Translations under genes and position numbers: made by a program
Shown: positions 13,180 through 43,500 of the stretch, one piece after another
Layout: every line of letters starts with the position of its first letter
Position numbering within the stretch: position 1 is the stretch's first letter
NCBI RefSeq assembly: GCF_964355755.1
Contig: NC_092672.1
Location: 20,766,501 to 20,830,500, forward strand
DNA: 64,000 nt
Origin: Antedon mediterranea
Lineage: Eukaryota > Echinodermata > Crinoidea > Comatulida > Antedonidae
Reading direction: 5' to 3'
Notes under the pieces: model-generated
What the model saw: only the letters and a program-made list of their open reading frames with translations
What the model was told of the DNA's origin: nothing
Databases searched by the model: none

Positions 13180-14380
13180 ATTAAAGTACTGTGTTCCTGT
13201 GGTATCATTTTGGGTATATGGAACACAATGCATTATATATGATGAATAAACCACTGTAATATGAGGCCGTTTTCCTATGTTAAAGTATTGTGTTCCTGGG
13301 GTATCATTTTGGGTATATGGAACACAATGCATTATATATAATGAATAATCCACTGTAATAAGCAATGGGGCCGTTTTCCTATGTTAAAGCATTGTGTTCC
13401 TGGGGTTTCATTTTGGGTACATGGAACACAATGCATTATATATAATTAATAAACCACTGTAATAAGCAATGAGGCCGTTTTCCTATGAGTATTGTGTTCC
13501 TGGGGTATCATTTTGGGTATATGGAACACAATGCATTATATATAATGAATAAACCACTGTAATAAGCAATGAGGCCGTTTTCCTATGTTAAAGCATTGTG
13601 TTCCTGGGGTATCATTTTGAGTATATGGAACACAATGCATTATAGCCTAATGAATAAACCACTGTAATATGAGGCCGTTTTCCTATGTTAAAGCATTGTG
13701 TTCCTGGGGTATCATTTTGGGTATATGGAACACAATGCATTATATATGATGAATAAACCACTGTAATATGAGGCCGTTTTCCTATGTTAAAGCATTGTGT
13801 TCCTGGAGTATCATTTTGGGTATATGGAACACAATGCATTATATATGATGAATAAACCACTGTAATATGAGGCCGTTTTCCTATGTTAAAGCATTGTGTT
13901 CCTGGAGTATCGGGGTATGGAACACAATGCATTATATATAATGAATAAACTACTGTAATATGAGGCCGTTTTCCTATGTTAAAGCATTGTGTTCCTGGGG
14001 TATCATTTTGGGTATATGGAGCACAATGCATTATATATGATGAATAAACCACTGTAATAAGCAATGAGGCCGTTTTCCTCGTTAAAGTATTGTGTTCCTG
14101 GGGTATCATTTTGGGTATATGGAACACAATGCATTATATATAATGAATAAACCACTTCAATAAGCAATGAGGCCGTTTTCCTATGTTAAAGCATTGTGTT
14201 CCTGGGGTATCATTTTGAGTATATGGAACACAATGCATTATATACAGTATAATGAATAAACCACTTCAATAAGCAATGAGGCCGTTTTCCTATGTTAAAG
14301 CATTGTGTTCCTGGGGTATCATTTTGGGTATATGGAACACAATGCATTATAGATAATGAATTAACAACTGTGGCCATTTT
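13180..14380. repeat. Hairpin satellite, 12 copies of about 102 bp
   Basis: Twelve head-to-tail units of roughly 98-105 bp. Each unit holds a perfect inverted repeat GCATTGTGTTCC ... GGAACACAATGC separated by about 22 nt ('tggggtatcattttgggtatat'), followed by 'aaaccactgtaataagcaatgaggccgttttcctatgtt'-like sequence. A few units are truncated (near 13486 and 13905). The 171-codon minus-strand open frame here is a by-product of the repeat. Confidence 0.92.
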
Positions 14381-15745: not shown

Positions 15746-17019
15746 AATCGTATTATTACTATATTAGACCTAACCTAAGTCTAGGCCGGTTATCACAGTA
15801 AATTGTTTTTATTTGCTGCCCGATCGTCTTGGGCCCAGAAAACGTGGTCTCTATCGTCTCATTTGCTGGGCCCGATCATATTAGCGCAGGGCCCAATGCG
15901 GTAGTTTTATGTTTGATATAATGGTAAAATCGATAACGTTTTATTTTGGTTCCGATAAAATCGGGTGTTCGGTATGGAGCGTTGCTGATTGCTGGTTCTG
16001 GTCAATATTTGTTTGGTACTATAAGGGATGAATGTTTATTTAGGCCTAAGCTTTTTGAGCTATCCTGCAAAATCTTTTATAATTGTATTATTTGTAATGT
16101 CAGTAATTTATGTTATCACTTTCTTTTATATGTATTTTTTATGATGATTTTCTAATCAATTCAAATCAAATCAGACCGACTACACTTTTCTGCTAACCAT
16201 TTAAATTCCTAGCTAGGCTAGGTCACAAGTGGTTATATGTTCATAAAAATTTGTTTGTAAAAATTTTGAATTTCGCTATTTTTTTCAGATTATTACTAAA
16301 TCTAGGCCTAGATGCTTTCCACCCCAAGTTAAAAAGAAACCAGCATGTCGTTTTAAAAAGGTAAAGGAAAATGCTGTTGATATTCTCTCTGTCATGCATA
16401 GTAGGCCTACTTTTAGTAGACCTGAAGTGAACATTCTGACACTTGTCACAGTTATTCATTAGGGTATTAAAACATGGAATGAAATGGTTGCCCACACATT
16501 GGCTGGTTAATTTACTAATTCCATCTGTCTAGCCCTTCTTTAAGTCAGTAGATTGTTTAAAAATAATACGTACATATGTGCAACGTTTCAACTTGTTTTT
16601 AATAAGTCTTCATCTGGCAACTGACTAGATGTTAGTACAGTAGTTGCTAGGAGTATAGAACCATCGCACATGTACGTATTCATGAATGGTTTTAACATAA
16701 AGAATTATATACAGAATAATTACTATTAGATCCTTCAAAATGAAACACATCCTCTTTTCAATACATATTAATTAATCCTCAAAGCTCCAAATGAATTCTT
16801 CAGAAAGACATGTACTGAGCGCTACAGAAAATAATTTATTCTGAAAGCTGTTAGACTTTACAAAAATTACTCTTTAGCAATAATTTGTATACATGTGTAT
16901 TTTAAACATTTGTTTTAAATGTTTGTTTACATTTGTGAGTCTGCCTCAACCAAAAGAATCAGATTGTGGATAATTAAAGTTGATTGAATTGAATAATTAA
17001 CTGTTTACTGTACTTTCAG

Positions 17020-17734
17020 GGGTTAATGGTGTGGATACATGATGAAAAAGAGGTTTGGGTTCGAGCATATGTCAATTCATGTTTTAGTAATGGCAAGATT
17101 ACAGTCACTAAATCTAATGGCCAGGTAAGAGGTTTGGGTTCCAGCGTGTGTTAATTCATGTTTTAGTGATGGCAAGATTATAGTCACTAAATCTAATGGC
17201 CAGGTAAGAGGTTTGGGTTCGAGCATGTGTTAATTCATGTTTTAGTGATGGCAAGATTACAGTCACTAAATCGAATGGCCAGGTAAGAGGTTTGGGTTCC
17301 AGCATGTGTTAATTCATGTTTTAGTGATGGCAAGATTATAGTCACTAAATCTAATGGCCAGGTAAGAGGTTTGGGTTCCAGCATGTGTTGATTCATGTTT
17401 TAGTGATGGCAAGATTATAGTCACTAAATCTAATGGCCAGGTAAGAGGTTTGGGTTCCAGCGTGTGTTGATTCATGTTTTAGTGATGGCAAGATTATAGA
17501 CACAAAATATAATTGTGAGGTACGGTAAGGAGGGGAGGGAAGCATACCATCTATGTCAACAACCCAACCTTGCTACTAAGTATTCTATATAATGTATTTT
17601 AAATATTGCTTGTAACTTCATTGTCTAGGAGGTTGTGATACGTGGTCATGCTGGCTATCCAGTGCTGTGTACTCAAACAGATTGGATCAATACAGATGAT
17701 CTTGTTTTGATTAATCCTCTCTCAGAACCTGCTG
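17020..17734 (+). CDS. Myosin N-terminal SH3-like segment (exons 1-2)
   Basis: The first two recognised exons encode about 70 residues ([16 protein letters not shown], then [11 protein letters not shown], then [11 protein letters not shown], then [13 protein letters not shown]) before the motor core. The spacing of W, V and G residues resembles the small SH3-like barrel at the N terminus of conventional myosins. As I recall it, the short N terminus of human MYO19 lacks such a clear barrel, so this may be retained or lineage-specific. The domain name is an inference from pattern only. Confidence 0.6.
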
Positions 17735-20700
17735 GTAAGTGAATTAATAGTAGACACATGTTTCAATGGTTGTTAGTACTATACAGGTCTTCCTCCTATT
17801 AAAGACTCCTTTAATTAAAAGCTCAATCTAATTTAAAGCCAGATGATCACCTATTTTTACCATTAGCTGTTGCCTCCCTCTAACTAATTAGAGATCAAAG
17901 ACCACAATTTGGATGAATCCAACATTTTCCTTCAAATTTTTCCAAATTAAATACTCACTTTAAAATAAAATTTATAGTTCAGTAATACATTTTTAGAGTA
18001 GAACAGCGAATAATTTGAAGAAAATTTGACAAAATATTGGCAACACACTTGAGCAGTACTTGGCTGGTAGATACCACACTTAGACTGGCAACACACTTGT
18101 TACTTCTAATGTTTTCTGTTCATAGTGCTGAACTGTTTATGTGAGCGGTACTTAGCTGGTAGATACCACACTCAGACTGCAACACACTTGTTACTTAACA
18201 AAATGTTTTCTGTTCATAGTGCTGAACTGTTTACATGAGCGGTACTTAGCTGGTAGATACCACACTCAGACTGGCAACACACTTGTTACTTAACAAAATG
18301 TTTTCTGTTCATAGTGCTGAACTGTTTACATGAGCGGTACTTAGCTGGTAGATACCACACTCAGACTGGCAACACACTTGTTACTTCTAATGTTTTCTGT
18401 TCATAGTGCTGAACTGTTTACATGAGCGGTACTTAGCTGGTAGATACCACACTCAAACTGGCAACACACTTGTTACTTTAAATCCTTTCAAAGAAACTGG
18501 ACATTTTGATGTTCATATGATTCATCGTTACCATAGTGATCAAAAGGTAAACAATGATTCGCTAGTATACTATTGATTTTTAGGAAAATTTATATGTTGG
18601 TGACATCACTATTAAAATCTTGACTTCACTTTATCTTCAATATTGGGCAAAAATATTAATATGTCCTCAGTTGCACTTAGAAGTGATAGAGATATATGCA
18701 GAGCTCCTCTGAAAAGATAATTGTTTTGCTGAATATGCTATTTTATGTCACATAATAACTGTAGTTATTCACTTCGACCAAAAATTGGGAAAAAAAACAT
18801 TATTTACCTGAAAAACTGTAATTTTTTAACATTTGGTTAAGTTTAACCATTAATTTTGTCTTTTTTAAAAGTAAAAACACTATATTTGTTTTTTTTTATT
18901 TCTTTAAAATGAATAACTTTTTTAAAACAGCAAAATGGCTTGATTTTATTAATCCTCATTTTCATGTTTTTTGGGGAATATACATCTTTATTTTTTTTTT
19001 TTTTCAGGCACACCCACCACATGTATTTGGAATTGCAGAAACAGCTTTGTGTAATCTTACTAGAAGACTAGACAAGATTAATCAGTCAATAATTGTCAGC
19101 GGTGAAAGTGGTTCTGGAAAGGTAATTCAACAATTTCAGTTTTACGTTTGTTTTCACCAATGTAATCAGAGTCAATTTTTACCTTTAGAACCATTTCTTG
19201 TTTATTTTGAAATAATAGAGAGACCTAAACTTGAATAAAAATAGAGAGGCTAAAAGCATGGACAAGTAATAGAGTGCTATAATTTGTTTTTACTGTTTCA
19301 AAGGACACTGTTACAAAATCAGCATTTATTGAATGTCACTAAATGCTTGCCAGACGTGCAAAGAGGGAATGTTGGCAACCCATTTTCACAAAGGCAGTTT
19401 GTCAATATTTTTTGTGAAAATACAAAAACGTTTGTTATTCTCTGTTATTTATTATTGTTTTATTACAGACATGGAATGCAAGATGTTTACTAAAATATCT
19501 GACAATGGTGGCAGTATGTAACCCTGGGTAATAAAAATAAACACATTTAATTTAATATCATTAAACACTCTCATGTATGTAAAATTACAGTTTTTATTTC
19601 ATCATAATTATAGATTTGTCTCTGTTTTGTTACTTATTTGTGATAACTTGTTGTCTTTTTTGTTCTTAGTGGTTTTACACCATCACCAGCAGATTGCATT
19701 GAACGTAGAATATTAGACTCAAATCCTATTCTTGAAGCATTTGGTAATTATTATGTTTATCTTTAATAAAGTACAGTAAGATACACATGTCATTCTCAAA
19801 TGTAAAAACATCTATGTACTGTTATGGTCCTAAGAAACATCGCTAGAAGTTGGACCTTTATTTTTGTTAAATATACAAAATCAGCATTTTTAAATCATAT
19901 CAATATATCAAATTTTCTATATTCATCATCATTATCATCAACAGATAAAGAAAAAAATAGAATAAGAACAGTTGATAAAGAGATGAGAACCAAATAAAAA
20001 CTAGATTTAATTCGTCACTATGACGAATTATAGGTTATATGCATTGATTTAAATAAAGATAATTGATTTTTAAAAGATATATTGATTGATTGATTTTCTC
20101 AGAATCTTTAATTATTTATAATATATGATAGGACCTTGCTAACCGGTATCACAATCCGATCAAAGATCCATATGCGTATAATGTCAGAAACCACATTTGT
20201 TGTTACATAATAATAAAGACATAAGTTAATTTTTATCTAGATTTCATTATAAATCATGTGTATAATCTGTACACTAAGAAATAATTTGAACAAACAATAC
20301 GGATAATAAAAAAAAATCTTATTTCGTTTCCCAAGGTGAGACTCGATCTCGGTACCTTGAATGCCATAGACACGAGCACAGACCATCGAGCCATACACAA
20401 CTGACTAAAAGTTGTAGAAAAATTCCTCCGTGTATTTACTATGCAGTAACCACTTTGGTGCAAATAGATTATTACATACCGAAATGAATTATAATTTTTT
20501 ACTATAATGACATCTTTAAAATGTAAACAAATGATGCACTGTCAAACTACATACTTTTAACTTTAATATATGAACTTTTGAAGGAAGAAAGTTAATGATA
20601 AGTTTGTTATTTTGGCCTAAGAAAATGTCATAATTTGTTTGATTGTCGAAATTAATTTTGTTAAATTTAATATGCCATTAATGATGACTTAATCAACTTT

Positions 20701-23700
20701 TGTTCTTCTAATTTCATAATAAATCATACATATGATACATACACTTCAAGAAAATTAAATAAAAAATAGGTGTTCCCGAGCATTCTAACGATATATATTA
20801 ATTTTAAAATTTAGCATATTTTCACCATTTTGTTAACTTACACGTGCGTAGCCCGTCACTTTTGACGTGCTCGTATAACGCTGTTTCGCGTTGAAAAGTG
20901 AATAAAATATGATGATATTATTAAAGAAAGGTTATACAACAGTAATCGGACACAAACAGTGCGCATTAACGTTTGACGCGCAGTGCGCGTGCAAAAATCT
21001 GCGCACTCATGGCAATTTTTTAAACGCTTAAAATTGCCTGAAACGTACTCTAATTTCATCGAAAATAAATTCTGACAATTTTTAACATTTTAAGCGCGCG
21101 GACGCATGCGTTATATGCGCTACGCACGTAATTGTATTGCCATATGATGAAATATGACCTGAAATTTATGAGTACCAAATTTTGTTTAAAAGTGATTCAT
21201 GTTTGTGAAGATATGATTACAAACGTGATTTCGTTAAATCGCGCGTAGACCGCGTAATTTTTGATTGCGCATCGTGAAAGCATAACCACATCGATTCCTG
21301 GCCATAAGGAATATACTCTGAAAAATTGACTTAGATAGATGAAACTGATGCCAAGATAATTCACGGACAAATAGTGCTAAGGAAAGAATAAATAAATAAA
21401 TAAATAAAGATTTTGACAGAATCAAGAGGTTATATGCATATCATGCATATAACCTAATGAGCATAATGATAGTATCATACTGATTTAAAAATAAATAAAT
21501 AAAGCTACACCTAACCTAAAATTGATTAACGCTTTATGTAAAATGAAATTTAAAATGATAATTTAAAGCAGTTTGTGTACTGATTTTACATTTTGTAATT
21601 CCTGCATAATCTTTAACCTTCAGTCATGGTGCCAAAATCCTTTAAACTCCTAATATAATATATAGGCTAAAACTGTTGATCAGCAGTGGCCAACTTACAG
21701 TATGTTCTAAATATGAATTTGGTGAGATTTTATGCTCAAATTAAATTTTTGGCAGATTTGGTATCATTAAGACTAGTAGAATTAATTGCAATTGATGGCA
21801 ATATTTGATGGCCTGCACCAGTATATATATATACAGTAATATTAATCTTTTGCCACCCAGTACCCTACACCTCCCTACAACTCCATCTCTGTTAGACAAC
21901 TATTATTTCATTTTCTTAGGCAATGCTAGCACAACCAGGAATCACAATAGTAGCCGCTTTGGAAAGTACATTCAGCTACAATTCAGTCGGTAAGTTTCAT
22001 ACATTATTTTTATTTGTCAATGTTCAACCAACATACTGTATACAGGCCATGCATTTTGAGTTTCTACATATGCCATTTTGTGTGTCATAGCAGGGAAGAA
22101 TGAAATTACACACAAGAGGAATTCTTATTTTAACTTTACAATTTTGTTTTCAGTGGAAATCATGTTGTTGGTGCTTCTATTCAGACATATCTTCTTGAGA
22201 AAACTAGAGTTGTTTATCAATGTGATGGTGCCAGGAATTTTCACATCTTTTACCAAGTTAGTATTAGTTATGTTTCATTTTTGTGTACCTTTAAACCGGA
22301 TAACCAACTGTTTAACTTAACTGCTGGAAACTGTGATACATTTGCATATTTCTGTTGCCATGTTTCTAAAGTGAGTAGGCTAATAGCAAACATATACCCT
22401 TTGGTTTTAATCAGGTTGTTAAAATTCTACTGATATTCACAGGGGCTTGTTTTTTTGTTTGTTCTGCGCATTTGTGCTTTGTCCTGGTATTTAACTGACC
22501 GTACACCTGTTTGAAAGTATCGAAGCGTGACTTTTTTTTTCTCACAAACTTGAGATTGTACTAATGATAGCACCGTCAACTATACAATGACAATACTTTT
22601 CCCGTGATTTCACAAGGTTCGTGAGTAAATATGAAAACATGCAATAAGTCTGGAGATCAATGTAGGCAGATGTGAAAAGGATCTTTCTGGTACTGATATT
22701 AAACATCTTGAAACAAAATTGTCACTTTGTAATATTTTGTAATATAGCGCAAGAAAGCACTCACTCTACTAATGTTATCAAAGCATGAAATATATTATTA
22801 GTTTATATTATTCTCATTATTAGTCTTTTTAATAATATCATTAACATTTCTTCTTTCAAATTATCATAGATGCTGTTTGGCGCAAATGAAAGGGAAATGA
22901 GGAACTGGTTACTACCAAATGTATTGAGTTCAGACAACTTAAACTATGTGAAACTAAACCGTTCAGAAGATGCATGTAATCAAAAGGATAAACAAGATTT
23001 TATAGTTACAAAGCAAGCAATGTGTAATGTTGGACTTAGCAGGTCACAGCAACAAGAATTATTTAAAGTAAGAAACTTTTACTTCATTAGTTAGTAAGCG
23101 ATGTCTAATGTTGGACTTAGCAGGTCAAAGCAACAAGAATTATTTAAAGTAAGAAACTTTTACTTCATTAGTTAGTAAGCGATGTCTAATGTTGGACTTA
23201 GCAGGTCACAGCAACAAGAATTATTTAAAGTAAGAAACTTTTACTTAATTAGAACTGGTTACTTAACAAACATTGTTTTACCAGGGAAGAGTGAATTCAC
23301 TGGTAAAACATGGTTAAACTTAGTGGTGATATTATTAGTAACTGAACCAAAACAATGTGTTTAGATGCCTTGGTTGAACTAATCCAGCACATGTGGACAG
23401 TAAACATGAGTGAACTAACTGAACCAAAGCAATGTGTTTAGATGCCTTGGTTGAACTAATCCAGCACATGTGGACAGTAAACATCAGTGAACTAACTGAA
23501 CCAAAGCAATGTGTTTAGATGCCTTAGTTGAACTAATCCAGCACATGTGGACAGTAAACATCAGTGAACTTTTACCTAGTTTTTACAATCATGATAGTAT
23601 ATTGATTCAAAACAACTTTTACAAATTTATGGTAATGAAAACCAAATGGTAGTATATAAATAAGTGATAATAGACTTTGATGTTTTTTATACATAAATCT

Positions 23701-26700
23701 AATAGTAATGTTATAATTCTATTTTTTGAATTATTGAATTGAATTTGAAAATGTGTTTATTTGTAGGTTCTAAGTGGTATACTTCATCTTGGAAATATAG
23801 AGTTTATTAGTGATGATGTCACTGGACCATGTGAAATTGATTCTGAAAAACAAGGTAAATGATATAAAAGGTTATGCTGTTTAATTATTTTCTGTATTAT
23901 ACCAATAAAAAGATTGCATACAGTATTTATAGTTTAGCTTAAAGTAGTTGCAACCTTTAAGATTGCATACAGTATTTATAGTTTAGCTTAAAGTAGTCCA
24001 ACCTGTCAGATTGCATACAGTATTTATAGTTTAGCTTAAAGTAGTTGCGACCTTTAAGATTGCATACAGTATTTATAGTTTAGCTTAAAGTAGTTGCAAC
24101 CTGTCAGATTGCATACAGTATTTATAGTTTAGCTTAAAGTAGTTGCGACCTTTAGGATTGCATACAGTATTTATAGTTTAGCTTAAAGTAGTTGCGACCT
24201 TTAAGATTGCATACAGTATTTATAGTTCAGCTTAAAGTAGTTGCGACCTTTAAGATTGCATACAGTATTTATAGTTTAGCTTAAAGTAGTTGCAACCTTT
24301 AAGATTGCATACAGTATTTATAGTTTAGCTTAAAGTAGTTGCAACCTTTTTTAAGATTGCATACAGTATTTATAGTTTAGCTTAAAGTAGTTGCAACCTT
24401 TAAGTTTTAATAGATTATGTTTATAATAAATTGGCGTTTACTTATGATTCAAAATATTCTATCAACAGTATATATATCTTTTTAGTATTTTTTAATTTGT
24501 TTTTATTTCTACCATAATATAATATATGAGAAATAACTAAAAACAGACATAAGGAATACCTTAATGTTATGGTAGGTTGGTCACAAAATATCTTTAAAAA
24601 TATCGTTAATAATTATATCATTTTAAAATCTTAAATAATCTTATTAATATTCTTCTCCATCTTCAAAAAATGTTGATAAAATATTTCAGCCAAAGAAAGA
24701 TTTTCTAATTTACTAATTATTCAATATATCATATTGTTGTACTATTGATGTTGCTTCATCAGGAGTTGACACATCTGTTAATGCTGCTGCACAGTTACTT
24801 GGTCTTGATGTTGATGCCTTAACTAGATGTCTTGCATTCCGACAAATCACTGCATCTCACAAGCGTAGAAAGAGTGTCTTTATGAAACCTTGCATAAAAG
24901 ATGAATGTCATACAAGGAGAGATTGTCTTGCAAAGTTACTCTATGCCAGGTATTTTACAAACATTAAAGCTATATTTGTTTGTAGTGAAAGAAACTTATT
25001 TACTCTTTTGAAAATAATCTTGTTGTGCAGTATTTGCCTTTTTACTGACCTGTACATTCAAAACAAACACACAGAAGATGTTGTACAAATCCAATAACTT
25101 TTATTTGCTTCCCCATATGCATGCTGGGCTGCACTGAGGTGGATTGCCCACAACAAATCCTACATTCACTTTTAAACATTCACAACAATTAAATAAACAT
25201 ACATACATGCAAACTCTAATACTTAGTCAATTTAATTTAATTTTATTCTGCCTAATTTCTTTCTTTGTCATGTAGTTAGTATGTAACAGGAGAAACTGTT
25301 TACATGCAAACTTTTTCAACCCCACTTTGGTTTTACCAAAAAAAAACTAGCTTTGAAGACTGTGACTAAATTATGGTTTAACGTTTCAGAGTTTTTGATT
25401 GGCTCGTTGGATTCATCAATGGCTGTACCATGGCCAGGAGTTGGCAGTCTTACATTGGTCTACTGGATGTCTATGGATTTGAAAGTTTTTCATTTAACAG
25501 TTTGGAGCAATTATGCATAAATTATGCAAATGAGAAGCTTCAGCAACATTTTGTGCACAACTTCCTCAAAGCAGAACAGGTATTCCAACAAACTTATTTT
25601 CTATATATAGAATATGCTAATATACAGTTGGTGCTACGGTGTTTTATTAGAGTGATAATAACAACAGTTCTTTATTAAAAAAACAAATGAAGAAAAATAA
25701 TATGGCACTTCTTTTAGTTTATATCAAACGAATCTTGTAAAAAAAATATCAAAATACTAGTATAATTATAATATAATATAAAATAATTAAGATAACAATA
25801 ATAATTAAAGTTTATGAGAATTATCATTCACTTTTTTTCTCTAACAGTGATAATGATGAACCTTTATAAACATAATTATACTGCTGATTAAACAGCCATG
25901 TTTATATTATTTTAGGATGACTGTCAATCTGAGGGAGTTCCATGGAAATTTGAAGACTTTACTGACAATAAAACATGTCTTGCTATTATTGAAGGCAACA
26001 TCAGTATATTTGCACTTATGAATCAAGTAAGTGTTGCTATTCCACAGCAAAATACACAAAATTATTTGTCATAGTTTTTCGCAAATTATGGTTGGAAAAG
26101 ACCTGTATTCTGTAGTTTGTCTTTTTATTGAAAGATAAACTGCTGTAAAAAAAGATGTATTGAGAATTTGCCTTTCTCAATCGTAGTACAGTACGTCGTA
26201 AAATAATAACTCTTTTGTATTTTGAATTTGACATTTTGAGAAACAGTGGTTTTTACCATACAGGCATAGTTTGTCTTACAAACGATAGTTTGTCTTTCCA
26301 TAAAAATAAACTGTCGTTTGTAAGAAGATAAAAAATGGATTTTGAGCATAGTTTACACTAGAAAACTAGATGTACTTTTGCACCTCAAGCTTAACCCCAA
26401 TATTCACCTGCTGCACATCAGTGATAGTGAGTGACCTTATGCCCAGTGATTTCAAGTTAGGTGCAAAAGTACAGTAGCACCACAACCAGTTGCAAACTAC
26501 AAGTTGTTGTGCTTAGACTGTCCATCTAAGATCACAATCATGTTATTATTTCATTTACTTTCTATGAACTAGTTGCAAGTTTATCTTGTTTATAGCAATG
26601 CAAGTTAAACAGACATTCAGATCCAAGTTCGTTTTGTGAGTTTCTTCATGACACCATCAGCAGTGCAAACTTATCTCGTGCACATATATCAGTGACATCA

Positions 26701-29700
26701 CCAGCTTTTGTTGTGCATCACTATGCAGAGAAAGTTACGTACCAAGTGGATGGTCTAATTGAAAAGAATAAGGTAATATACTTACAACTGAAAGCCAGTT
26801 TTACAGTATATTCACAAAAAAAGGGGGTTAGAAGTTCATAAATAGTTTCTCAAAGCATTACAATTATGGAATAGTGCATCTGCTTCGTTTAAACTCATTT
26901 CTCATAATCTTATAACTGAAAATAAATACCACAGGAAAATGTATCAATGGCTGTTTGTAGCTATAGGTAATGCTCTATCACCTGTGTAAGAAGAGGATAC
27001 ACCATTTAAGTTGGAAAAGCTTTTGCTTTTGCTAAACTATTTTAGCTCATTTGTTCAAAACTTGTAGTGAGATCAAGGAGGAAGGACCAGACAATTTAAT
27101 TATCAACTTTAGAATACAACATAGTGTATAGGAACAAATTAAAGGTAAGCCTGTCATTAATAAAAACAATGGTCAGCAGTCAAACAGTTTATATTTGTTT
27201 AATACAATGATATTATATAGCCGAAGGCTAGATGTCAAACTACAAAGTTATCGCAGTTCAAAAGGTGATTCTCCATGGAGAGGGAACCAACAAAATAACG
27301 GCTTTCAATCGACCAATCAGATATGCCCAACGCAGTACGCACTGCTATATGCCTGTGTTGAGCCTATCTGCGTGAGAACAATACACAATGCAGCGTGTTA
27401 AGCGTATAACCGTGAACGCATTCTATATGATCCTCAAATACAAAAATGCTAGATTACCTAGAATTTATTCATTCCATTGCGATTTATAAATCTTCACTGT
27501 GCTTTGACAAGAATATGTGAATGTATTATATTAGATTATTATTTGTTATGTTAAATAATGTTTTTGAACACATTTACGGCTGCCATCTTTTTTCAGTCTG
27601 GAGTACGTGCTCAGCCTTCAGCTTACATACAGTATTACATATCTCTGGTTTTATATCAAAATAAGAATTGGTTCACTAACACAATTCTATTTAGAAAACG
27701 ACAAGAGTGTTTCAACCTATTTAACCACATACTGTATGCTCTCCAATATTACAATTTCATCAAGTTAAGAACAATCAATTTACCATCTTGCCCTCCTGCC
27801 TTCCTGCCCTATTACCATGGCTTTTTTTCTGAGCATCCCTATAATATTTACTTTGAATGGAAACCTTATTGCTATTACATTATATTTGCTCATTAGATTT
27901 GATGTGCAGTGTTCACAGGTGAATGTTCATTTACTAATTAATCTATTGTGTATCATTTGATGTTTTTAGGATGGTATTCCAACAGAACTTGTAGATTTGC
28001 TTAAAATTAGCAGCAAGAAGTTTGTGCAACAATTAGTTGATGCTAATGTTACCAGTTTACAGGTGATTAATCTTTTCATTTGTTTTTAAACACCATAGTA
28101 ACACTATACTAATGCCATACTAACATCAAACTAACAATGTAGTAACACCATACTAACAATGTAGTAACACCATACTAACACTATACTAACACTATACTAA
28201 TGCCATACTAACATCAAACTAACAATGTAGTATTGTAACACTATACTAACATCAAACTAACAATGTACTAACACTATACCATTGCTTTTTAAGTTCTGTC
28301 TTCATCAATGTTACATCATGAAACTTTTAAACAAAGAATAATGCCGAATAAATGTGTGATATTTATAATGCCTTTGCATCTTGTCTTGTTATGTCAATAG
28401 TTCTGTTTAACCTAAATTAGGTTAATTTTATGATTGTTTTTTCAGAGTCCAAGTAAAACAAAAGGCAAAAAGACTACTTCTTCAGTGGTATCAACATTTA
28501 AGGTACAGAATCCTGAACTCATACAAAACTTAATTTAGAATCTTGATGAATTTAGTATGGAACATCAATTTAAAAAATACCTTCAAGACCGAGCTCTTGT
28601 TTTAGGAGTTAGATAGGTTTTTTGCTTTGTTGTTGTTTTTGCTTTCTTGACCCTTTTTTTTTCTTGAAAGAGAAGAAACAGGGAAACAAGGCCTTTTATG
28701 GGTTATCCTCAGCATCCCTGTTTTTGTATATTGTTGATGTTTCATATTTTGTTTCCTGTATATTATATTAATTTTATCTGTAAATTGTTTTTTATGATGC
28801 TGAAATAAATCAAATAAACATCTGCAAGATCACTCAAATTGTTGCTTCCCAATTTTTTTTTTACTTCTGTTGAAAATGTAACTTATATTATGCAAGATAT
28901 TTTATTTTTTGATTATCAGACATATTTCCTCAATCCATTTTGTATTTACTATACTTATTTTGGTTGATACCATTTAGTTTTTACATGTAATCTTCGGGAT
29001 AACAATCTAACAATTGTATCTTATATCTTAGAATTCATTGGACAGTCTTATGGCTACTTTACATGAAATAACACCTCACTACATCCGCTGTATCAAACCA
29101 AGTCTTGAGTGTCAACCAGACAGCTTTGATAACGTTCATGTTATAAATCAACTACGTGCTTGCGGTGTTCTTGAAACAATTCAGATTAGTGCAACAGGCT
29201 TCCCTACCAGGTCAGCTTACAGGGATTGTTTTGTGTTCTTTTTATACTAACAATGTACCCATCTATGACTGGTTAATACCCTTGTTAGTTAAATTCACTT
29301 GAAACAATTCAGATTAGTGCAACAGGCTTCCCTACCAGGTCAGCTTACAGCTATTGTTTTGTGTTCTTTTTATACTAACAATGTACCCATCTATGACTGG
29401 TTTATACCCTTGTTAGTTAAGTTCACTTGAAACAATTCAGATTAGTGCAACAGGCTTCCCTACCAGGTCAGCTTACAGCTATTGTTTTGTGTTCTTTTTA
29501 TACTAACAATGTACCCATCTATGACTGGTTTATACCCTTGTTAGTTAAGTTCATTTGAAACAATTCAGATTAGTGCAACATGCTTCCCTACCAGGTCAGC
29601 TTAAAGTTATTGTTTTGTGTTCCTTTTATACTAACAATGTACCCATCTGTGACTGGTTTATACCCTTGTTAGTTAAGTTCACTTGAAACAATTGAGATCA

Positions 29701-32700
29701 GTGCAAGAGGCTTCCATACCAGGTCAGCTTAAAGTTATTGTTTTGTGTTCCTTTTATACTAACAATGTACCCATCTGTGACTGGTTTATACCCTTGTTAG
29801 TTAAGTTCACTTGAAACAATTGAGGTCAGTGCAACAGGCTTCCCTACCAGGTCAGCTTACAGCTATTGTTTTGTGTTCTTTTTATACTAACAATGTACCC
29901 ATCTATGACTGGTTAATACCATTGTTAGTTAAGTTAACTTGAAACAATTCAGATTAGTGCAACAGGCTTCACTACCAGGTCAGCTTACAGCTATTTGTTT
30001 TCATTTGATACCTTGGCTAAACATTTTCGATATTGAATTATTAAGCAAAAACTAAAATCGTTGTGTTGTATTGTTTTATAGCTAGTTGCACTAAACCTTA
30101 TTTGTATTTTCCTGTATTTTTTACTATTACAATCCCAATTAAACAGCTTGCTCTAGGACTTACAATGCATATACTGAAAGATGAGGGCGTATCAATTTGA
30201 TCTCTGATGAGTGTGCCTACAACTGAGGGACTAGTGCTGTACCGCCGTACCACGACGATCCAATCGAGTTTGAACAATACCATGGTGTCTATTGGTTAGG
30301 ACATCTGCATATCAAGCAGAAGGTTCCGGGTTTGAATCTTGGTGGAGGCGACTTTTTCTCATTCTCACAGATTTCCTCATCTTCATCGTATCAAATTAAT
30401 TAATTAAATTTCAGTATAACTATATCACCGGGCGGTTTAGAATTTATTCTGTGCCTGTGATGTATATAATATATACTATATATACATCCCTGTGCATACT
30501 GTACATGTTGAACACCTACACTTGCCAGTGTGTTGTTTGTTATACTTGATTCTGAACGATAACGACAATTTTCTTATAGAATGTTGTACAGTGATTTTCT
30601 TAAGAGGTATGAATTATTAATAAGGTCAAACTCAGAAGATGTAAAAGATTTGGATACAAAAAGTAAATGTGCTGTTATTACGAATCTGGTTTTAGCTGAA
30701 GCAGACAAAGAAAATAAAATGAAAAGCTTTTTGTTTGGAAAAACAAAGATATTCCTAAGAGAGGGAGAGGTACTTAAAAGCAGTTTAATAATAATTTAAT
30801 TATTTTATATTTGCAGTAGAATAAATTAAATTTTAATTAGTTTAAGTGAATATTTTATGGCAAAGGAATCATTAGCAATTATTTGACTTTATACGGTCAT
30901 TTTTCGCCAAGGTAAGGTGAACTAGGCTTGCCGACCCAGCCAAGTCTACTTACACTTTGCTACATATTTTAATATAACAGATGTAATATTTAGTTCCTCG
31001 AGAAAAATATCATTCCCTCGGGGATTTCACCTCTAAGTAGGCAATATCTGTATAATATAAACCTTTGCAGTAGAGCTGAATGAGTGTCGTAAAATAAACC
31101 TTTATTTTTTAAAGTAGTGCTACAGGAATATTTTTGTAGAATAAGATAGGAAATTCACCAAAATTAACTAAATAATTATGTAAAATTGAGGCATTTTTCT
31201 CTTTAAAAAAAGTATATAAATATAAAAAGGAAAAGAACAATTAATTTGACACAATTTGAAAAATACCATTTTATTAAAAATTATTACCCAGTTAAATGTG
31301 TGTAAGTCATTGAAAATCAGTAAAATTGCTATCTTATAACATGAAAAAGTTGTAGCACCAAATTATAATACTTTGTTTTTAGCTTGTTAGTGTAAAAAAG
31401 TAAGTAAGAATCTGCATCATTGTATATTTATTATATTCCGTTATTTTTTATTTAGTTGGATAAACTTGAAGATGCAAGATTGAAGGAATTCAATTTAAGT
31501 GCTGGTGTAATACAGATATGGTGGAGGAAGATCCTGGCAACCAAAAGTAAACAAGAGGCAGCTGTGGTCATCATTCAAGCAGGTATTGATTGTAATAGTG
31601 TTTTGCCAAATATCTTGCAGGCATCATGCTGTTACCAAACCAAGTCACTAATTGTCACTAATTAGAATTGATATGTTGTAGGTTTTAGAGGCTGGAAGGT
31701 GAGAGAAGATGTAAAGAGACGACATGAGGCAGCACGTGTCATACAGTATGCTATGATTGGATATTCAATTCGTTTAAACCAACGCAAGTTAGATGAACAA
31801 TTAAATGAATTGAATTCAGACGAGGTAGGCCTTTACTTAAAACTCGCAATTTTCAATCTTCGCTGCACTAACAGACTTTACATTGTGAAGTATGTTCCTT
31901 CATCACTAACACATCCTCATTTACATGTACTTACTTTAATGATGTTAAATTAACACATCATCATATGTACTGTGCTATAAAACTAATAATGTTGAATAGA
32001 GTATATTTCATTTACTGAGAGATTGCCTGTGCTTGGTTCCGCCTCATTAAATGGTCAATCAGTTAATTTTCATGAAATATTCTCCGTATTCAAATCATAA
32101 ACATTCAGTTTATGATTTTTAATCTAATATTTTTCTTGATACAATTTAATATTTATTTTTACCAGTTTGCTGATTCTGATGTGCAAGAATGCAATGATAA
32201 ACAATCGCAACAAAACAATAGCATATTAACAGAAGGTATACTGTCAGCAGTATCATTGGATAATGAACCTCATGAGAGTAACCTGTCGGTGATTAGTTCA
32301 AGCAATGGCACCAAAGAAGTTGAAGATCAAGACAAGAGAGATAAGTTTACCAGTAAAGAAGTTGAAGATCAAGACAAGAGAGATAAGTTTACCAATAAGA
32401 GCATCAATGAAATTGAAGAACCAGAAAATGTAAATAACAATTCTAGAATACAATTTCATGAAAATGGTAACCTGAACTGTAATAGTGGTAGAAGTGAGGG
32501 AAATACAATAGTTAACATTGAACAAAAGAAAGATGGGGATGAAATATCTCAAAAGAAGAGCTCAAATGAACAATGTGCTACACATAAACCAATAGTTAGT
32601 GAGCACCAGAATGGTAGACGTGTTGAAGGGGAGCCTGTAAATCAAGGAACTACTACCATCATTAACAAGTTTGTGCAAGTTGCAACAACTCCTGCAGTTG

Positions 32701-32759
32701 ATATAGCTTTTGGTATTGCGTTACTTGGTTTGCTGTATCATGGTCCAGTTAGGCTATAA
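17020..32759 (+). CDS. MYO19: Class XIX-like (mitochondrial) unconventional myosin, 21 exons
   Basis: Exons: 17020-17124, 17629-17734, 18407-18546, 19008-19121, 19469-19527, 19670-19743, 21920-21989, 22154-22256, 22870-23067, 23767-23854, 24763-24949, 25390-25579, 25916-26026, 26596-26772, 27970-28062, 28446-28502, 29032-29210, 30580-30769, 31456-31582, 31682-31824, 32166-32759. All phases agree (3,105 nt). Motor landmarks in order: LVTLNPF, P-loop GESGSGKT, switch [11 protein letters not shown], switch [30 protein letters not shown], and the SH1-helix [14 protein letters not shown]19-type signatures are [14 protein letters not shown] and [11 protein letters not shown]. Three IQ motifs follow ([35 protein letters not shown]). 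Expected role: actin-based motor on mitochondria. The first ATG in frame is at 17026, just after an AG acceptor; either this is the start behind a 5'-UTR intron or an earlier exon is missing. AATAAA at 33123. Confidence 0.9.
17047..17520 (+). repeat. 79-bp splice-donor array grown from myosin exon 1
   Basis: 'ggtttgggttc' recurs at 17052, 17131, 17210, 17289, 17368 and 17447, exactly 79 bp apart. Each unit is the last 73 nt of exon 1 plus GTAAGA of its donor. The first copy is the real exon end (donor at 17125); the others lie in the intron and keep 'ccag|gtaaga'. The 'aagagg' at the exon breakpoint and in the donor gives a short homology that fits slippage. Use of a later donor would read into a stop (tgt taa). 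Confidence 0.92.
18030..18480 (+). repeat. 92-95-bp splice-acceptor array grown from myosin exon 3
   Basis: 'ttctgttcatag|tgctgaactg' (intron end plus exon start) occurs with its catag at 18121, 18215, 18310 and 18402, with a partial older copy near 18050. Each upstream copy carries the acceptor and about 70 nt of exon 3, then breaks off at 'cttgttact' and hits taa or tag. Only the last copy (exon 18407-18546) continues into ...[11 protein letters not shown] and a donor. Confidence 0.9.
20031..21454. repeat. Possible element bounded by inverted 'taggttatatgcat' motifs
   Basis: 'taggttatatgcat' at 20031-20044 is matched in reverse at 21443-21456 (atgcatataaccta), where it also forms a local hairpin with 'ggttatatgcat' at 21428-21439. 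The interior is non-coding and includes a tRNA-like stretch. This intron is the longest upstream one in the myosin gene. Whether it is one insertion or a chance arrangement is uncertain. Confidence 0.35.
20325..20420 (-). repeat. tRNA-related SINE-like fragment
   Basis: On the minus strand 'tggctcgatgg' resembles a Pol III A box and, about 45 nt later, 'gagatcgagtctc' resembles a B box. The spacing is tRNA-like but the cloverleaf is not intact. Most likely a SINE head or tRNA pseudogene in a myosin intron. Confidence 0.45.
23022..23240 (+). repeat. 81-bp splice-donor array grown from myosin exon 9
   Basis: 'ttggacttagcaggtca' recurs at 23030, 23111 and 23192 (period 81). Each copy includes the last 40 or so nt of exon 9, the donor 'aaa|gtaaga', and about 40 nt of intron ending 'ttagttagtaagc'. 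The first copy is the working exon end (23067). The intronic copies are 27 codons apart but carry tag stops right after the donor. Confidence 0.9.
23338..23570. repeat. 77-bp tandem repeat in myosin intron 9
   Basis: Three near-identical copies of 'aactgaaccaaagcaatgtgtttagatgccttggttgaactaatccagcacatgtgg...' follow about 100 bp after the exon-9 array. No coding content. Confidence 0.85.
23911..24405. repeat. 48-bp tandem repeat in myosin intron 10
   Basis: About ten copies of 'gattgcatacagtatttatagtttagcttaaagtagttgcaacctttaa' with few changes. Intronic; no similarity seen to flanking exons. Confidence 0.92.
26275..26324. repeat. 17-bp inverted repeat (intronic hairpin)
   Basis: 'cttacaaacgatagttt' (26275-26291) faces 'aaactgtcgtttgtaag' (26308-26324) across a 16-nt loop, with one position that can pair as G-U in RNA. 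It lies in the myosin intron after the exon ending 26026. It is too short alone to call a microRNA precursor. Confidence 0.6.
28085..28275. repeat. Short irregular tandem repeat in myosin intron 15
   Basis: Repeats of 'accatactaacaatgtagtaac' and 'atcaaactaacaatgtagta' of about 20-40 bp, arranged irregularly just after the exon ending 28062. Confidence 0.75.
29160..29995 (+). repeat. 128-bp splice-donor array grown from myosin exon 17
   Basis: '(c)ttgaaacaattcagattagtgcaacaggcttccctaccag|gtcagc' occurs first as the true end of exon 17 (donor at 29211) and then six more times at about 127-129-bp spacing (near 29298, 29425, 29552, 29682, 29810, 29938). Each unit carries about 41 nt of exon, the donor and about 87 nt of intron. 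The exon piece encodes the conserved SH1-helix region ([13 protein letters not shown]). Later copies show more substitutions. Confidence 0.92.
30165..30365. repeat. Two tRNA-related fragments in opposite orientation
   Basis: + strand 30287-30355: a D-arm like 'gtctattggttaggac', a perfect 5-bp anticodon stem TCTGC/GCAGA with a 7-nt loop (atatcaa), and a T-arm with 'gggtttgaatctt'; the acceptor stem does not pair. - strand about 30270-30170: a second tRNA-like stretch with 'tggtacggcgg'. A T-run follows the first. Read as SINE heads or tRNA pseudogenes, not working tRNAs. Confidence 0.5.
32166..32759 (+). CDS. Myosin tail exon with repeat and C-terminal hydrophobic segment
   Basis: The last exon encodes 197 residues, mostly polar and rich in N, E, K, S and Q. 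A 14-residue unit beginning [13 protein letters not shown] occurs twice (DNA 32313-32396, period 42 bp). The final residues, [20 protein letters not shown] followed by PVRL and stop, form a hydrophobic stretch of about 16-18 residues with a basic residue after it. That arrangement fits a tail anchor in a membrane, plausibly the mitochondrial outer membrane, given what is known of MYO19 location. Confidence 0.8.
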   Translation, partial: FADSDVQECNDKQSQQNNSILTEGILSAVSLDNEPHESNLSVISSSNGTKEVEDQDKRDKFTSKEVEDQDKRDKFTNKSINEIEEPENVNNNSRIQFHENGNLNCNSGRSEGNTIVNIEQKKDGDEISQKKSSNEQCATHKPIVSEHQNGRRVEGEPVNQGTTTIINKFVQVATTPAVDIAFGIALLGLLYHGPVRL

Positions 32760-40500: not shown

Positions 40501-43500
40501 CCACAGATGGTTCTCGAATACATAATAATTTCAGCGTTAAAAAACTGGCGATTTCAAATGTACGTACCGCAGGACAATAATACATGTCGTGTACAGGAAC
40601 GAATAAATAGACACTGTGATTTATGTACTCAACTAAAATTAGCACCCTATTACTTCCGAAAGAGAAACTTGTCACAAAATAAGACCAATTGTTTAAGTCA
40701 AATTTAAACAAACTTAATTTGTGTTTTGTATGTAACATTAGGGTTGAGGGATGGGGAAGAGGATGGGTGCAAAGAGGAACAATGTTAAAATATATTCTTT
40801 ATCCATTTAGTAACGAAATATTAATTGTTTTCATGTTTTACAAATAATATACCACTAAACACAGTAAAACATTGCGATGTAATACTTTGTTGAAACTATC
40901 ACCGTCCTAGTCGATTGAAATAGTACAGCACATGTAACGATACATCACTACGGCGTGTATATGTTTATAATATAATGTAAAACAATTTGTGAAAACCACC
41001 TCTATTCGGGGAAAATCATAAATTTGATTTAATCGTCAATAAATATTAAATTATCTAACTCAACTTAATTAGTAGGCCTAATGGTTTTCAATTGTTTCTT
41101 AGAGCCAATTCATACTTAAGTTGGTTCCTACTCTACCCACCAAAGTTGTTCTGCGTTTAGGGCATGTGATGTAATTGTACCGTAGGCCTATTCTCTACTG
41201 GTTTTACAACGCTACTCATGCCAGTGAGGGAAAGGTGATGATGTGGGTGGTTTAACTGCAATAATAAAGATTTGTACATAATATACGGCGAGTGAAAACG
41301 CTAGCTCATTATCCGTTTAAAAAAAAATTATATCCAACCTCTGCAGCACAGATTAAAAAAAAAATGGATCGAATTTCTGTTATGAGTATACAGTACTTGC
41401 CTTTACGACGCCTGAGGGAATAGAAACTTGTGAAACAGAGATTGGAATGTTCCATTCATCGCAAATCAATACATTTGTATAATCGTATATTAAATCTATC
41501 AAAATAGTATTTTTTTAAGAAAATCGGCCTGTCTTCAACATTATGATGCTGTACTCTAGCTGTTCAACCGGTTTTCAGCTATTAAAAACAATTATCGTAG
41601 GAGGAGATAGGAAAATGCGAAGCCTCCTCGTATTTTTGTGGCGGGTATTTTTCAAGATGGACATCCATTAGACAGTGTATACCACGATCGGAAAACACCC
41701 CTATTTGGGGCAAATCGTTGAACCTAAATTCGTTTTAATCGTCAATAACTAATTACCTAACTCAATTTAATTAGTAAACAGGGTTACATCAGATGGTTAA
41801 AATCAGTACCGAAAGTATGAACCAACTTTATATACCATCGAGTAGAAATTCTAGAAATAAACCGAGATTTACCGAATTTAGCCCTTACGTAAATTTATAT
41901 ATAGATACTGATAGTTTCATGTTATCATTTTTTTTATCTTATGTGGATACTGATAGTTTCATATTATCATTTTTTTTATCTTATGTGGATACTGATAGTT
42001 TCATGTTATCATTTTTTTTTATCTTATGTAGATACTGATAGTTTCATGTTATCATTTTTTTTTTATCTTAGGTGGATACTGATAGTTTCATGTTATCATT
42101 TTTTTATCTTATGTGGATACTGATAGTTTCATGTTATCATTTTTTTATCTTATGTGGATACTGATAGTTTCATGTTATCATTTTTCTACCATTAGCAAGG
42201 ACTAGTAAATACATAAAAAACATTTTTATTATCTGGTATTATCATCAACAAACCTGCGACTGATGAGATTGTTTCCCCATATTCTGCAGGGGAAATTCAT
42301 AGAATGTCAATCAATTAGTCAACTGATTTTCATTATATTGTAAAAAAAAGTATTTAACCATGTATTACTTTAACAATAAAACCTATCTATAATTAAAACG
42401 GCCTTCGTAGATGTCTCTGGACTAAAGGACATATATCTTTGTACATTGTATTGTTAAAATGTGGTATCAAATAAAAAATACTGCAATTGAAGAAAATTGT
42501 GATGATAATCAAAAATTTCAACTAACCTTCCAGAAATAGCCACTTTAAATGATTGGTCATCATGCGTTCATTGCCACATTTAACACTATTAGTATCTAGT
42601 TTCAAGCACTTTTTGAGATCATGTAAATGAGGCTTCTCTGCTGGATAACAAGCAGTACACAACACACATAGATTGTAGCCAACTCCTTCTCTAGTGACAA
42701 GTACAGTTTCTAGTTGATGCATTAGATAACTTAACACCTACAAACCAAGTAAAATGTAGAACATAAGTTTTAAATATAATAGGTTGAAAGTTTGAATCAA
42801 CCCATATAGGCAAAAGTGCTTGACACAATTAAGCAGAGCAGAATAGATTATGCAGAGTGACTCAATGGCTCTGAGTGTTACATGATAACAAAGATTACAT
42901 AGAAGGTGGAAGCTGTTTATATATAGTATTTAGCCAGTTTGCCAAATTCCAATTTGGGGCATCAAGTTTTCCTGGGATACCTTACGCCTACAACTAGGTG
43001 GTCCAGCGTGCCATGAATTTACATAGTTTTTGGGTGAATAAAAAAGACATCATATACATATCGTAGAATAAAATATTATAAATATGTCTTTTGTAATTTT
43101 TATTAGAGTCAGCAATTTGAGTTTCGTACATGGCGACTTGAACGTACATATGATAATTTCCATTTATTTCCGTTTATTGGCAATCATTACATTCAAGTGC
43201 TGGTGTTAACAATGTTATTAATAAAGCCTACAGTATCATGCTAATCTTTACCTCTATGCAGAAACTTGGCTGCGGTTCATTCATTTGGTCTCTAACATTA
43301 CCATCAACTTCAGTCAGATAAGTTATTTCAAGCTGATGAGGAAAATTGTCTTTGTTAATTTAAAATGAGTTAAATAATATATGCAAAACATTACCATTAT
43401 TATTACCAGTATTCATTGTGCATTCAATGTATTCATAAAAATGAAAATGTAATACTGTAGTGTAATAGTAGTAAGATTAAGATTGTAATTATTTAAAACT

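What the first reader, a model, noticed from the sequence alone, without database searches (positions are those of the whole stretch)
17020..30000. One gene, four independent tandem arrays that copy exon edges together with their splice sites
In the myosin gene, exons 1, 3, 9 and 17 each sit beside an array whose unit is part exon, part intron, with the splice site inside. Periods differ (79, 92-95, 81, 128 bp), so the arrays arose separately. In the three donor arrays the first copy is the working one; in the acceptor array the last copy is. In every case the extra copies fall wholly inside the intron and the protein frame is untouched. This is what selection would leave if slippage often duplicates exon-intron borders, or it may reflect a process linked to splice sites or to transcription. 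I know of no named class for such arrays.
Basis: partly seen in the sequence, partly recalled or inferred. Interest (0 to 1): 0.85.

Follow-up and report, generated by a model that had tools for sequence, protein, structure and literature searches.

The report
Repeated exon edges inside crinoid introns
In a feather-star (crinoid) gene, four exon edges with their splice sites have been copied in tandem into the neighbouring introns; this is a known but little-studied kind of repeat called a "mirage", described so far in amphioxus, and here it recurs in about 20 copies of the gene with very different repeat numbers.

Summary
A myosin-XIX gene carries four tandem arrays whose unit straddles a splice site (periods 79, 92-95, 81 and 128 bp); 13 of 16 decoy sites score as high as the working one. 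The interpretation needs correcting. First, the class has a name: "mirages", described in amphioxus Adh3, globin, TnC and PGBD5 genes. Second, nothing found ties the process to splice sites: the excess in this gene is modest and post hoc (P 0.02-0.05), 0 of 24 arrays in a 210-kb sample cross a called exon edge, and a genome-wide donor-word test gives about the control rate. "Outermost copy works, frame untouched" is a geometric consequence of duplicating a stretch with one splice site. Third, the gene exists in about 20 copies on one chromosome; unit numbers run from 2 to 17 (A1) and down to one for A3 and A4, and two copies lost array A2 together with the working acceptor. Arrayed exon edges vary about twice as often per site as unarrayed exon sequence (P 0.02-0.04), but this rests on A1 and A2; A3 goes the other way. 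The same genome has border arrays at DHX8, TIMELESS and an EGF exon. New member of a known kind.

The parts
16289..32759 (+). MYO19 (unconventional myosin-XIX-like) coding region, 22 exons found here; the exon with the start codon was not found
   Evidence: 21 exons, one frame; upstream coding exon 16289-16360, in frame; homologs P0001-P0013
   Evidence: donor CAG|GTAAGA
17048..17513 (+). array A1, donor mirage, 79-bp unit x5.9; unit = 77 nt of exon plus GT; decoy donors after 17203, 17282, 17361, 17440, 17519
18407..18546 (+). exon 3; working acceptor = last copy of the array
18050..18478 (+). array A2, acceptor mirage, 92-95-bp unit x4.6; decoy acceptors before 18126, 18220, 18315
22870..23067 (+). 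exon 9; working donor directly after 23067
23015..23252 (+). array A3, donor mirage, 81-bp unit x2.9; 53 nt of exon per unit; decoy donors after 23148, 23229
29032..29210 (+). exon 17; working donor directly after 29210
29170..30001 (+). array A4, donor mirage, 128-bp unit x6.5; 41 nt of exon per unit; six decoy donors
23339..23570 (+). 77-bp array in intron 9, away from a border (interior comparison)
23910..24404 (+). 49-bp array in intron 10, interior
32313..32398 (+). 42-bp in-frame coding repeat in exon 21 (14 codons)

Best explanation
These are mirages: minisatellites seeded by chance tandem duplication of a short stretch that happened to contain one splice site, then lengthened and shortened by unequal exchange or slippage. 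(1) Shown: the unit spans the border, the outermost copy is the one the reading frame needs, the inner copies lie in the intron. (2) Follows from geometry: duplicating [exon part + site + intron part] leaves the mRNA unchanged as long as the outermost site is used, so such events are close to neutral, while a duplication wholly inside an exon changes the protein. (3) Inferred: exon definition chooses the outer site, because the inner sites lack a proper partner; the sites themselves are mostly equally strong. (4) Shown in the paralogs read: unit number changes freely, and the end copy of A1 on the intron side has drifted. Shrinkage is not always harmless: two paralogs lost A2 together with the working acceptor. 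(5) Suggested, not settled: the working exon edge takes part in the turnover, since edges in A1 and A2 vary more between paralogs than the rest of their exons and partly share variants with intronic copies. (6) Inferred: nothing beyond ordinary minisatellite formation in a repeat-prone gene family of about 20 copies is needed.
For: Anatomy. Unit number per locus: A1 2-17 over 19 loci (one further 58-bp hit at 22099701 left out); A2 up to about 7.5 over 20 loci, lost in L045 and L046; A3 one in L042 and three in L043; A4 one in L032 and L033, seven in the window. A divergent last A1 unit recurs at 8 of 8 loci (one residue different in L028). Variable sites, all loci read: arrayed 21 of 243, unarrayed parts of the same four exons 17 of 379 (Fisher P 0.04), with exons 0 and 2 added 23 of 557 (P 0.017). 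In 12 of 20 variable working-copy sites both states also occur in intronic copies (A1 6/8, A2 4/8, A4 2/4). Elsewhere in the genome: of 8 donor-word arrays outside MYO19 read, 3 adjoin a coding exon confirmed by homology (DHX8; TIMELESS; EGF), 1 adjoins a plausible exon (L049), 4 show none. No clear donor-specific excess.
Against: No RNA was available; use of the outer sites is read from frame and homology. The excess in this gene (P 0.02-0.05) leaves room for some border preference. The edge-variation effect is uneven: A1 8/77 against 1/28, A2 8/72 against 1/68, A4 4/41 against 8/138, but A3 1/53 against 7/145; an earlier count without A3 and with looser limits gave P 0.008 and 0.0001. 8 of 20 variable edge sites carry a state not seen in an intronic copy. 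A4 shows clusters rather than a clean end effect. Loci read were chosen by the tool's ranking or for contrast in unit number: 9 for exon 1, 8 for exon 3, 6 for exon 9, 11 for exon 17, of about 20 each. Of 11 paralogs whose 5' part was read, 4 have a damaged exon 1 or 3 (L023, L024, L045, L046), so relaxed selection is a confounder.
Confidence: 0.82

Rival explanations
1. A process linked to splice sites or transcription (R-loops, co-transcriptional breaks, proto-splice AG/GT words) actively duplicates exon-intron borders.
For: 4 of 6 arrays in this gene at borders, P 0.023; the A1 unit start and the donor region share AAG-AGG-like words (by eye).
Against: 0 of 24 arrays in 210 kb cross a called exon edge against 0.48 expected (low power); donor word tandem rate 5.5% against 4.9% for its reversed control once A1 is set aside; 4 of 8 donor-word arrays read elsewhere show no coding exon, in line with the control count of 6,247 against 10,601 for that word.
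Confidence: 0.12
2. The arrays are kept by selection because intronic copies work: as alternative or cryptic exons, as splicing regulators, or as a store of exon-edge variants moved into the gene by conversion.
For: Edges in A1 and A2 vary more than unarrayed parts. The database model P0001 begins with residues that match intronic copy 5 of the array in its own locus (L056), as if spliced through the internal ttttag|T site. P0002 and P0004 also deviate at mirage sites.
Against: A3 and A4 are single-copy in paralogs with intact exon and donor (L042; L032, L033). Edges in A3 do not vary more. Reading on through A1 meets stops. P0001 is a gene model and the 37-nt insert would break the normal frame.
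Confidence: 0.12
3. Assembly artefact: collapsed or expanded repeats.
For: Tandem arrays are hard to assemble; an amphioxus mirage appeared mis-assembled in its draft (PMC3087553, passage).
Against: The arrays occur at 19-20 separate places with different unit numbers and private substitutions.
Confidence: 0.03

Closest known systems
Mirages of amphioxus (Adh3, globins BflGb6/BflGb9, TnC, PGBD5)
   Same: Minisatellite-like tandem copies of exon-intron borders, at donors and acceptors, extra copies in the intron, AG/GT signals in many copies, units of 10-160 bp, unstable copy number, concerted evolution with boundary copies left out (PMC3087553 section 16 read; PMC3902484 passage read; the naming paper, doi 10.1093/nar/gkf386, not held, known only through these).
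   Different: Here in an echinoderm, four in one gene, carried by about 20 paralogs. RNA evidence is lacking here; RT-PCR supported normal splicing for amphioxus globins.
Internal tandem repeats at exon-intron boundaries in human segmental duplications (PMC2812944)
   Same: Repeats at borders, in families of paralogs; loci with variable repeats are enriched in larger paralog groups (passages read).
   Different: There border repeats can make new introns or be retained in exons; here the copies appear to stay inside existing introns.
Intron gain by tandem duplication
   Same: Tandem duplication carrying splice-site words (PMC4974935, title and start of abstract in a listing).
   Different: There the duplication creates a new intron; here the extra copies sit in introns that were already there.
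Introners
   Same: Repeated sequences that carry splice sites (PMC4457414 in a listing; definition recalled).
   Different: Introners are dispersed copies of one element that become introns; these four arrays are local and share no unit.

Membership tests
mirage | tandem repeat whose unit spans an exon-intron boundary | tested here: met
   for all four arrays
mirage | authentic border is the outer copy; extra copies lie in the intron and carry AG/GT signals | tested here: met
   (by frame and homology)
mirage | copy-number instability | tested here: met
   between paralogs; between individuals not tested
mirage | concerted evolution inside the array with boundary copies left out | tested here: inconclusive
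   A1: divergent last unit at 8 of 8 loci; A4 shows no clean end effect; A2 and A3 not tested for this
mirage | mRNA spliced normally | not testable with these tools
   no RNA data; gene models of the relative are mixed
introner | one shared sequence family at many unrelated sites | tested here: not met
   the four units differ in period and sequence; the listed hits of the four array searches lie only in one 5.5-Mb region of C3 (capped lists)
tandem (mutually exclusive) exon array | each unit a whole exon with both splice sites | tested here: not met
   units hold one border; A1 units also hold a weaker acceptor-like ttttag (5.7-6.4 against 7.2-17.5 for the gene's acceptors)

The most novel reading that the evidence does not exclude
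Mirages are a general feature of at least deuterostome genomes and act as local mutators: unit turnover between the working exon edge and its intronic copies makes that edge evolve faster than the rest of the exon, sometimes deletes the working site, and now and then lets an inner copy be recruited as a cryptic exon.
Probability: 0.22. Interest if true: 0.65.

Novelty: new member of a known kind. Interest (0 to 1): 0.43.

Why it matters
It carries a class known from amphioxus into an echinoderm and offers about 20 paralogs of one gene, each with its own array lengths, including single-copy states and lost borders. That is a natural series for watching how such arrays are born, grow and shrink, how splicing picks one site among several equal ones, and whether exon edges inside arrays evolve faster. 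It also suggests that gene models can go wrong at such borders.

Tried and rejected
Introners and exon arrays were considered and rejected (membership test). A link of array starts to donor words by microhomology was looked at by eye only and not pursued. At A4 the single-copy loci L032 and L033 do not show whether they never had the array or lost it. The ungapped figure for 40 nt of intron 16 (33.6%) is a misalignment and was not used. The first shared-state test took a wrong first copy for L027 and was redone. The first edge-variation count left out array A3 and loci read later, counted a site beside L023's deletion and set the A2 limit too wide; one search mends this, and the odds of the novel case and of the second rival were lowered for it. 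The exon caller was trained on MYO19 itself, so its accuracy elsewhere is unknown. P0004's extra residues at exon 9 match the intronic copy type but I found no simple GT-AG splice that explains them. L030 was placed wrongly and held no exon 17; it was dropped. Six lone donor-word pairs in the listing were judged by eye not to be arrays and were not read. A Pfam scan of the window's proteins failed on a faulty frame and was not repeated.

A listing of the reversed-word arrays was asked for repeatedly and never answered, so arrays of the control word could not be counted one by one; only the whole counts are used.

Full report
What the window is. The gene at 16289-32759 encodes a myosin XIX; the closest proteins are five unconventional myosin-XIX-like models of the crinoid Antedon mediterranea (88-95% identity), then Anneissia japonica (74%). 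The exon 9 translation of one paralog (L043) reads the same as the matching part of the A. mediterranea model P0001, so the genome is that species or a very near one. The genome held (G000) has 354 Mb in 18 contigs and the window lies at C3:20766501-20830500.

The observation. Tandem Repeats Finder gives the four arrays at the stated places. Exons read by motif give 21 exons, 20 GT-AG introns and one open frame ending in a stop; a further coding exon lies upstream at 16289-16360 and joins in frame. In the donor arrays A1, A3 and A4 the first copy continues the exon; in the acceptor array A2 the last copy does. The Anneissia ortholog aligns across all four borders with that choice. Splice-site scores trained on this gene's own sites are equal for working and decoy donors, apart from the last A1 copy (7.7 against 10.8); of three decoy acceptors one equals the working site (11.4) and two score 8.3. 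Reading on past the first A1 donor meets stops.

Is it more than chance? With 40 borders in 15.7 kb, a unit of 79-128 bp placed at random among tolerated positions covers one splice site in 21-29% of cases. Four of six arrays at borders has P = 0.023, four of seven P = 0.033. With called exons over the window, 4 of 16 arrays against 1.3 expected, P = 0.047; in 21 sampled 10-kb stretches (210 kb, of which 2,500 bases of L001 are N), 0 of 24 arrays against 0.48 expected. The sample is small and was not random (five pieces near 10 Mb on each of four chromosomes and one chromosome end). Genome-wide, the pair CAGGTAAG-N70-100-CAGGTAAG occurs 729 times against 308 for the reversed word; single words 10,601 against 6,247. 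Per word this is 6.9% against 4.9%, and 5.5% against 4.9% after taking out the A1 arrays (upper bound 152 pairs). Pair counts are dominated by a few long arrays, so this is a rough test. It gives no clear sign of a donor-linked process.

Why the pattern looks so orderly. A tandem duplication of a stretch with one splice site gives back the same mRNA if the outermost site is used. The extra copies must then lie in the intron, the first donor copy or last acceptor copy must be the working one, and the frame must be intact. These three features are therefore one fact, not three.

Paralogs. The listed hits put A1 at 19 places on C3 between 19.6 and 25.1 Mb (one more 58-bp hit set aside), A2 and A4 at 20 places each; in these lists only the window's copy is on the plus strand. 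A1 has 2 to 17 units, A2 up to about 7.5. A3 is single in L042 and has three units in L043. A4 has one unit in L032 and L033, two in L034, L035, L037, L039 and L040, three in L036 and L038, six in L031, seven in the window. L042 and L033 lie 8 kb apart near 21.41 Mb, in one gene copy by position. In L045 and L046 array A2 is gone together with the acceptor and the first 13 bases of exon 3: here a contraction seems to have run from the first, acceptor-less partial copy into the exon. In 8 of 8 A1 loci the last unit is the same divergent form (one residue different in L028), so the array is probably older than the amplification, and its end escapes homogenisation, as described for amphioxus. Of 11 paralogs whose 5' part was read (L022-L029, L045, L046, L056), 4 have a damaged exon 1 or 3: L023 a two-base deletion, L024 an acceptor AT, L045 no 5' part of exon 1 and no exon 3 acceptor, L046 no exon 3 acceptor. 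Not all copies need be working genes.

Exon edges. Over all loci read, variable sites are: exon 1, arrayed 8 of 77, unarrayed 1 of 28 (9 loci, L023 left out for its deletion); exon 3, 8 of 72 against 1 of 68 (8 loci); exon 9, 1 of 53 against 7 of 145 (6 loci); exon 17, 4 of 41 against 8 of 138 (11 loci); unarrayed exons 0 and 2, 4 of 72 and 2 of 106. Together 21 of 243 against 17 of 379 (P = 0.04) or 23 of 557 (P = 0.017). A first count without exon 9 gave stronger values (22 of 200 against 9 of 224, P = 0.008; 12 of 402, P = 0.0001). The effect is seen at A1 and A2, weakly at A4, and not at A3. Nearby intron stretches differ by 0.25-3.0% per site pair, the arrayed part of exon 1 by 4.8% (8 loci). 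Of 20 variable working sites in A1, A2 and A4, 12 have both states in intronic copies (overlap of variable columns: P = 0.029 A1, 0.083 A2, 0.005 A4). Exchange between edge and intronic copies is likely but does not explain all of the variation. In the window, the intronic A1 copies match Anneissia better (15-17 of 25 residues) than the working copy does (13 of 25).

Gene models at mirage sites. P0001 begins MASDGKIIITKSNDQ; the last 13 residues are those of intronic copy 5 of the array in L056, while exon 1 there looks intact. Splicing from a copy's donor to the internal ttttag of copy 5 would give that start. P0002 lacks exon 1 and ends exon 3 early, P0003 and P0004 start inside exon 3, and P0004 has extra residues at exon 9. 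These are models; whether RNA supports them is unknown.

Elsewhere in the genome. Of the 100 places listed for the donor pair (C1, C2 and C3 to 20.1 Mb), the 8 array loci outside MYO19 were read; 6 lone pairs were not. L055 is a DHX8 exon (41 residues, E 9.8e-20 to a DHX8 chain) with a 37-bp unit holding 29 nt of exon, about 11 copies in the stretch read. L050 is a TIMELESS exon with a 47-bp unit and L052 an EGF exon with a 44-bp unit; in these only 5 and 4 exon bases are copied, so they are border arrays in a weak sense. L049 has a plausible exon (no family match) with a 41-bp unit and 18 nt of exon. L048, L051, L053 and L054 show no coding exon at the first donor.

Known class. Ebner and colleagues describe this in amphioxus globin genes and cite Adh3 for the name "mirages" (section 16 of PMC3087553); a PGBD5 paper adds PGBD5 and troponin C (passage). 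Two searches aimed at echinoderm cases returned no paper; two searches with "mirage(s)" and "minisatellite" returned only those two papers. The library lacks most subscription papers, so absence in print is not shown.

Verdict. The most interesting new points are the spread of unit numbers over about 20 paralogs, including lost borders, and a possible faster variation of arrayed exon edges, which needs the full set of loci to be sure.

Noticed in passing
G000:C3:19.6-25.1 Mb: MYO19 is amplified to about 20 copies over 5.5 Mb of one chromosome; in the listed hits all but the window copy have one orientation.
   Followed up: partly
32313-32398: In-frame 42-bp coding repeat ([13 protein letters not shown]) in the last exon; A. 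mediterranea models P0001 and P0003 show more copies.
   Followed up: no
41740-41900 and 49240-49480: Similar sequences in opposite orientation (TGLHQ.VKISTES.NQLYIPSS...) flank a stretch with what looks like a Roc/COR-type gene (by eye); perhaps ends of a mobile element or an inverted duplication.
   Followed up: no
L028 (G000:C3:20760670-20764135), locus bases 2763-3466: A 53-bp array of at least 13 units upstream of exon 1, running to the end of the stretch; TRF lists no such array in the window copy.
   Followed up: no
L045 (G000:C3:21670601-21671850): This paralog lacks the 5' part of exon 1, so the internal ttttag of an array unit is the first acceptor left there.
   Followed up: no
13181-14371: 99-bp x11.7 array upstream of the gene whose unit contains near-inverted halves (GCATTGTGTTCC / GGAACACAATGC).
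   Followed up: no
P0004 (A. mediterranea model), exon 9 region: Extra residues NVGLTVAVRTMS before the usual sequence, partly of the intronic A3 copy type; no simple splice found.
   Followed up: partly
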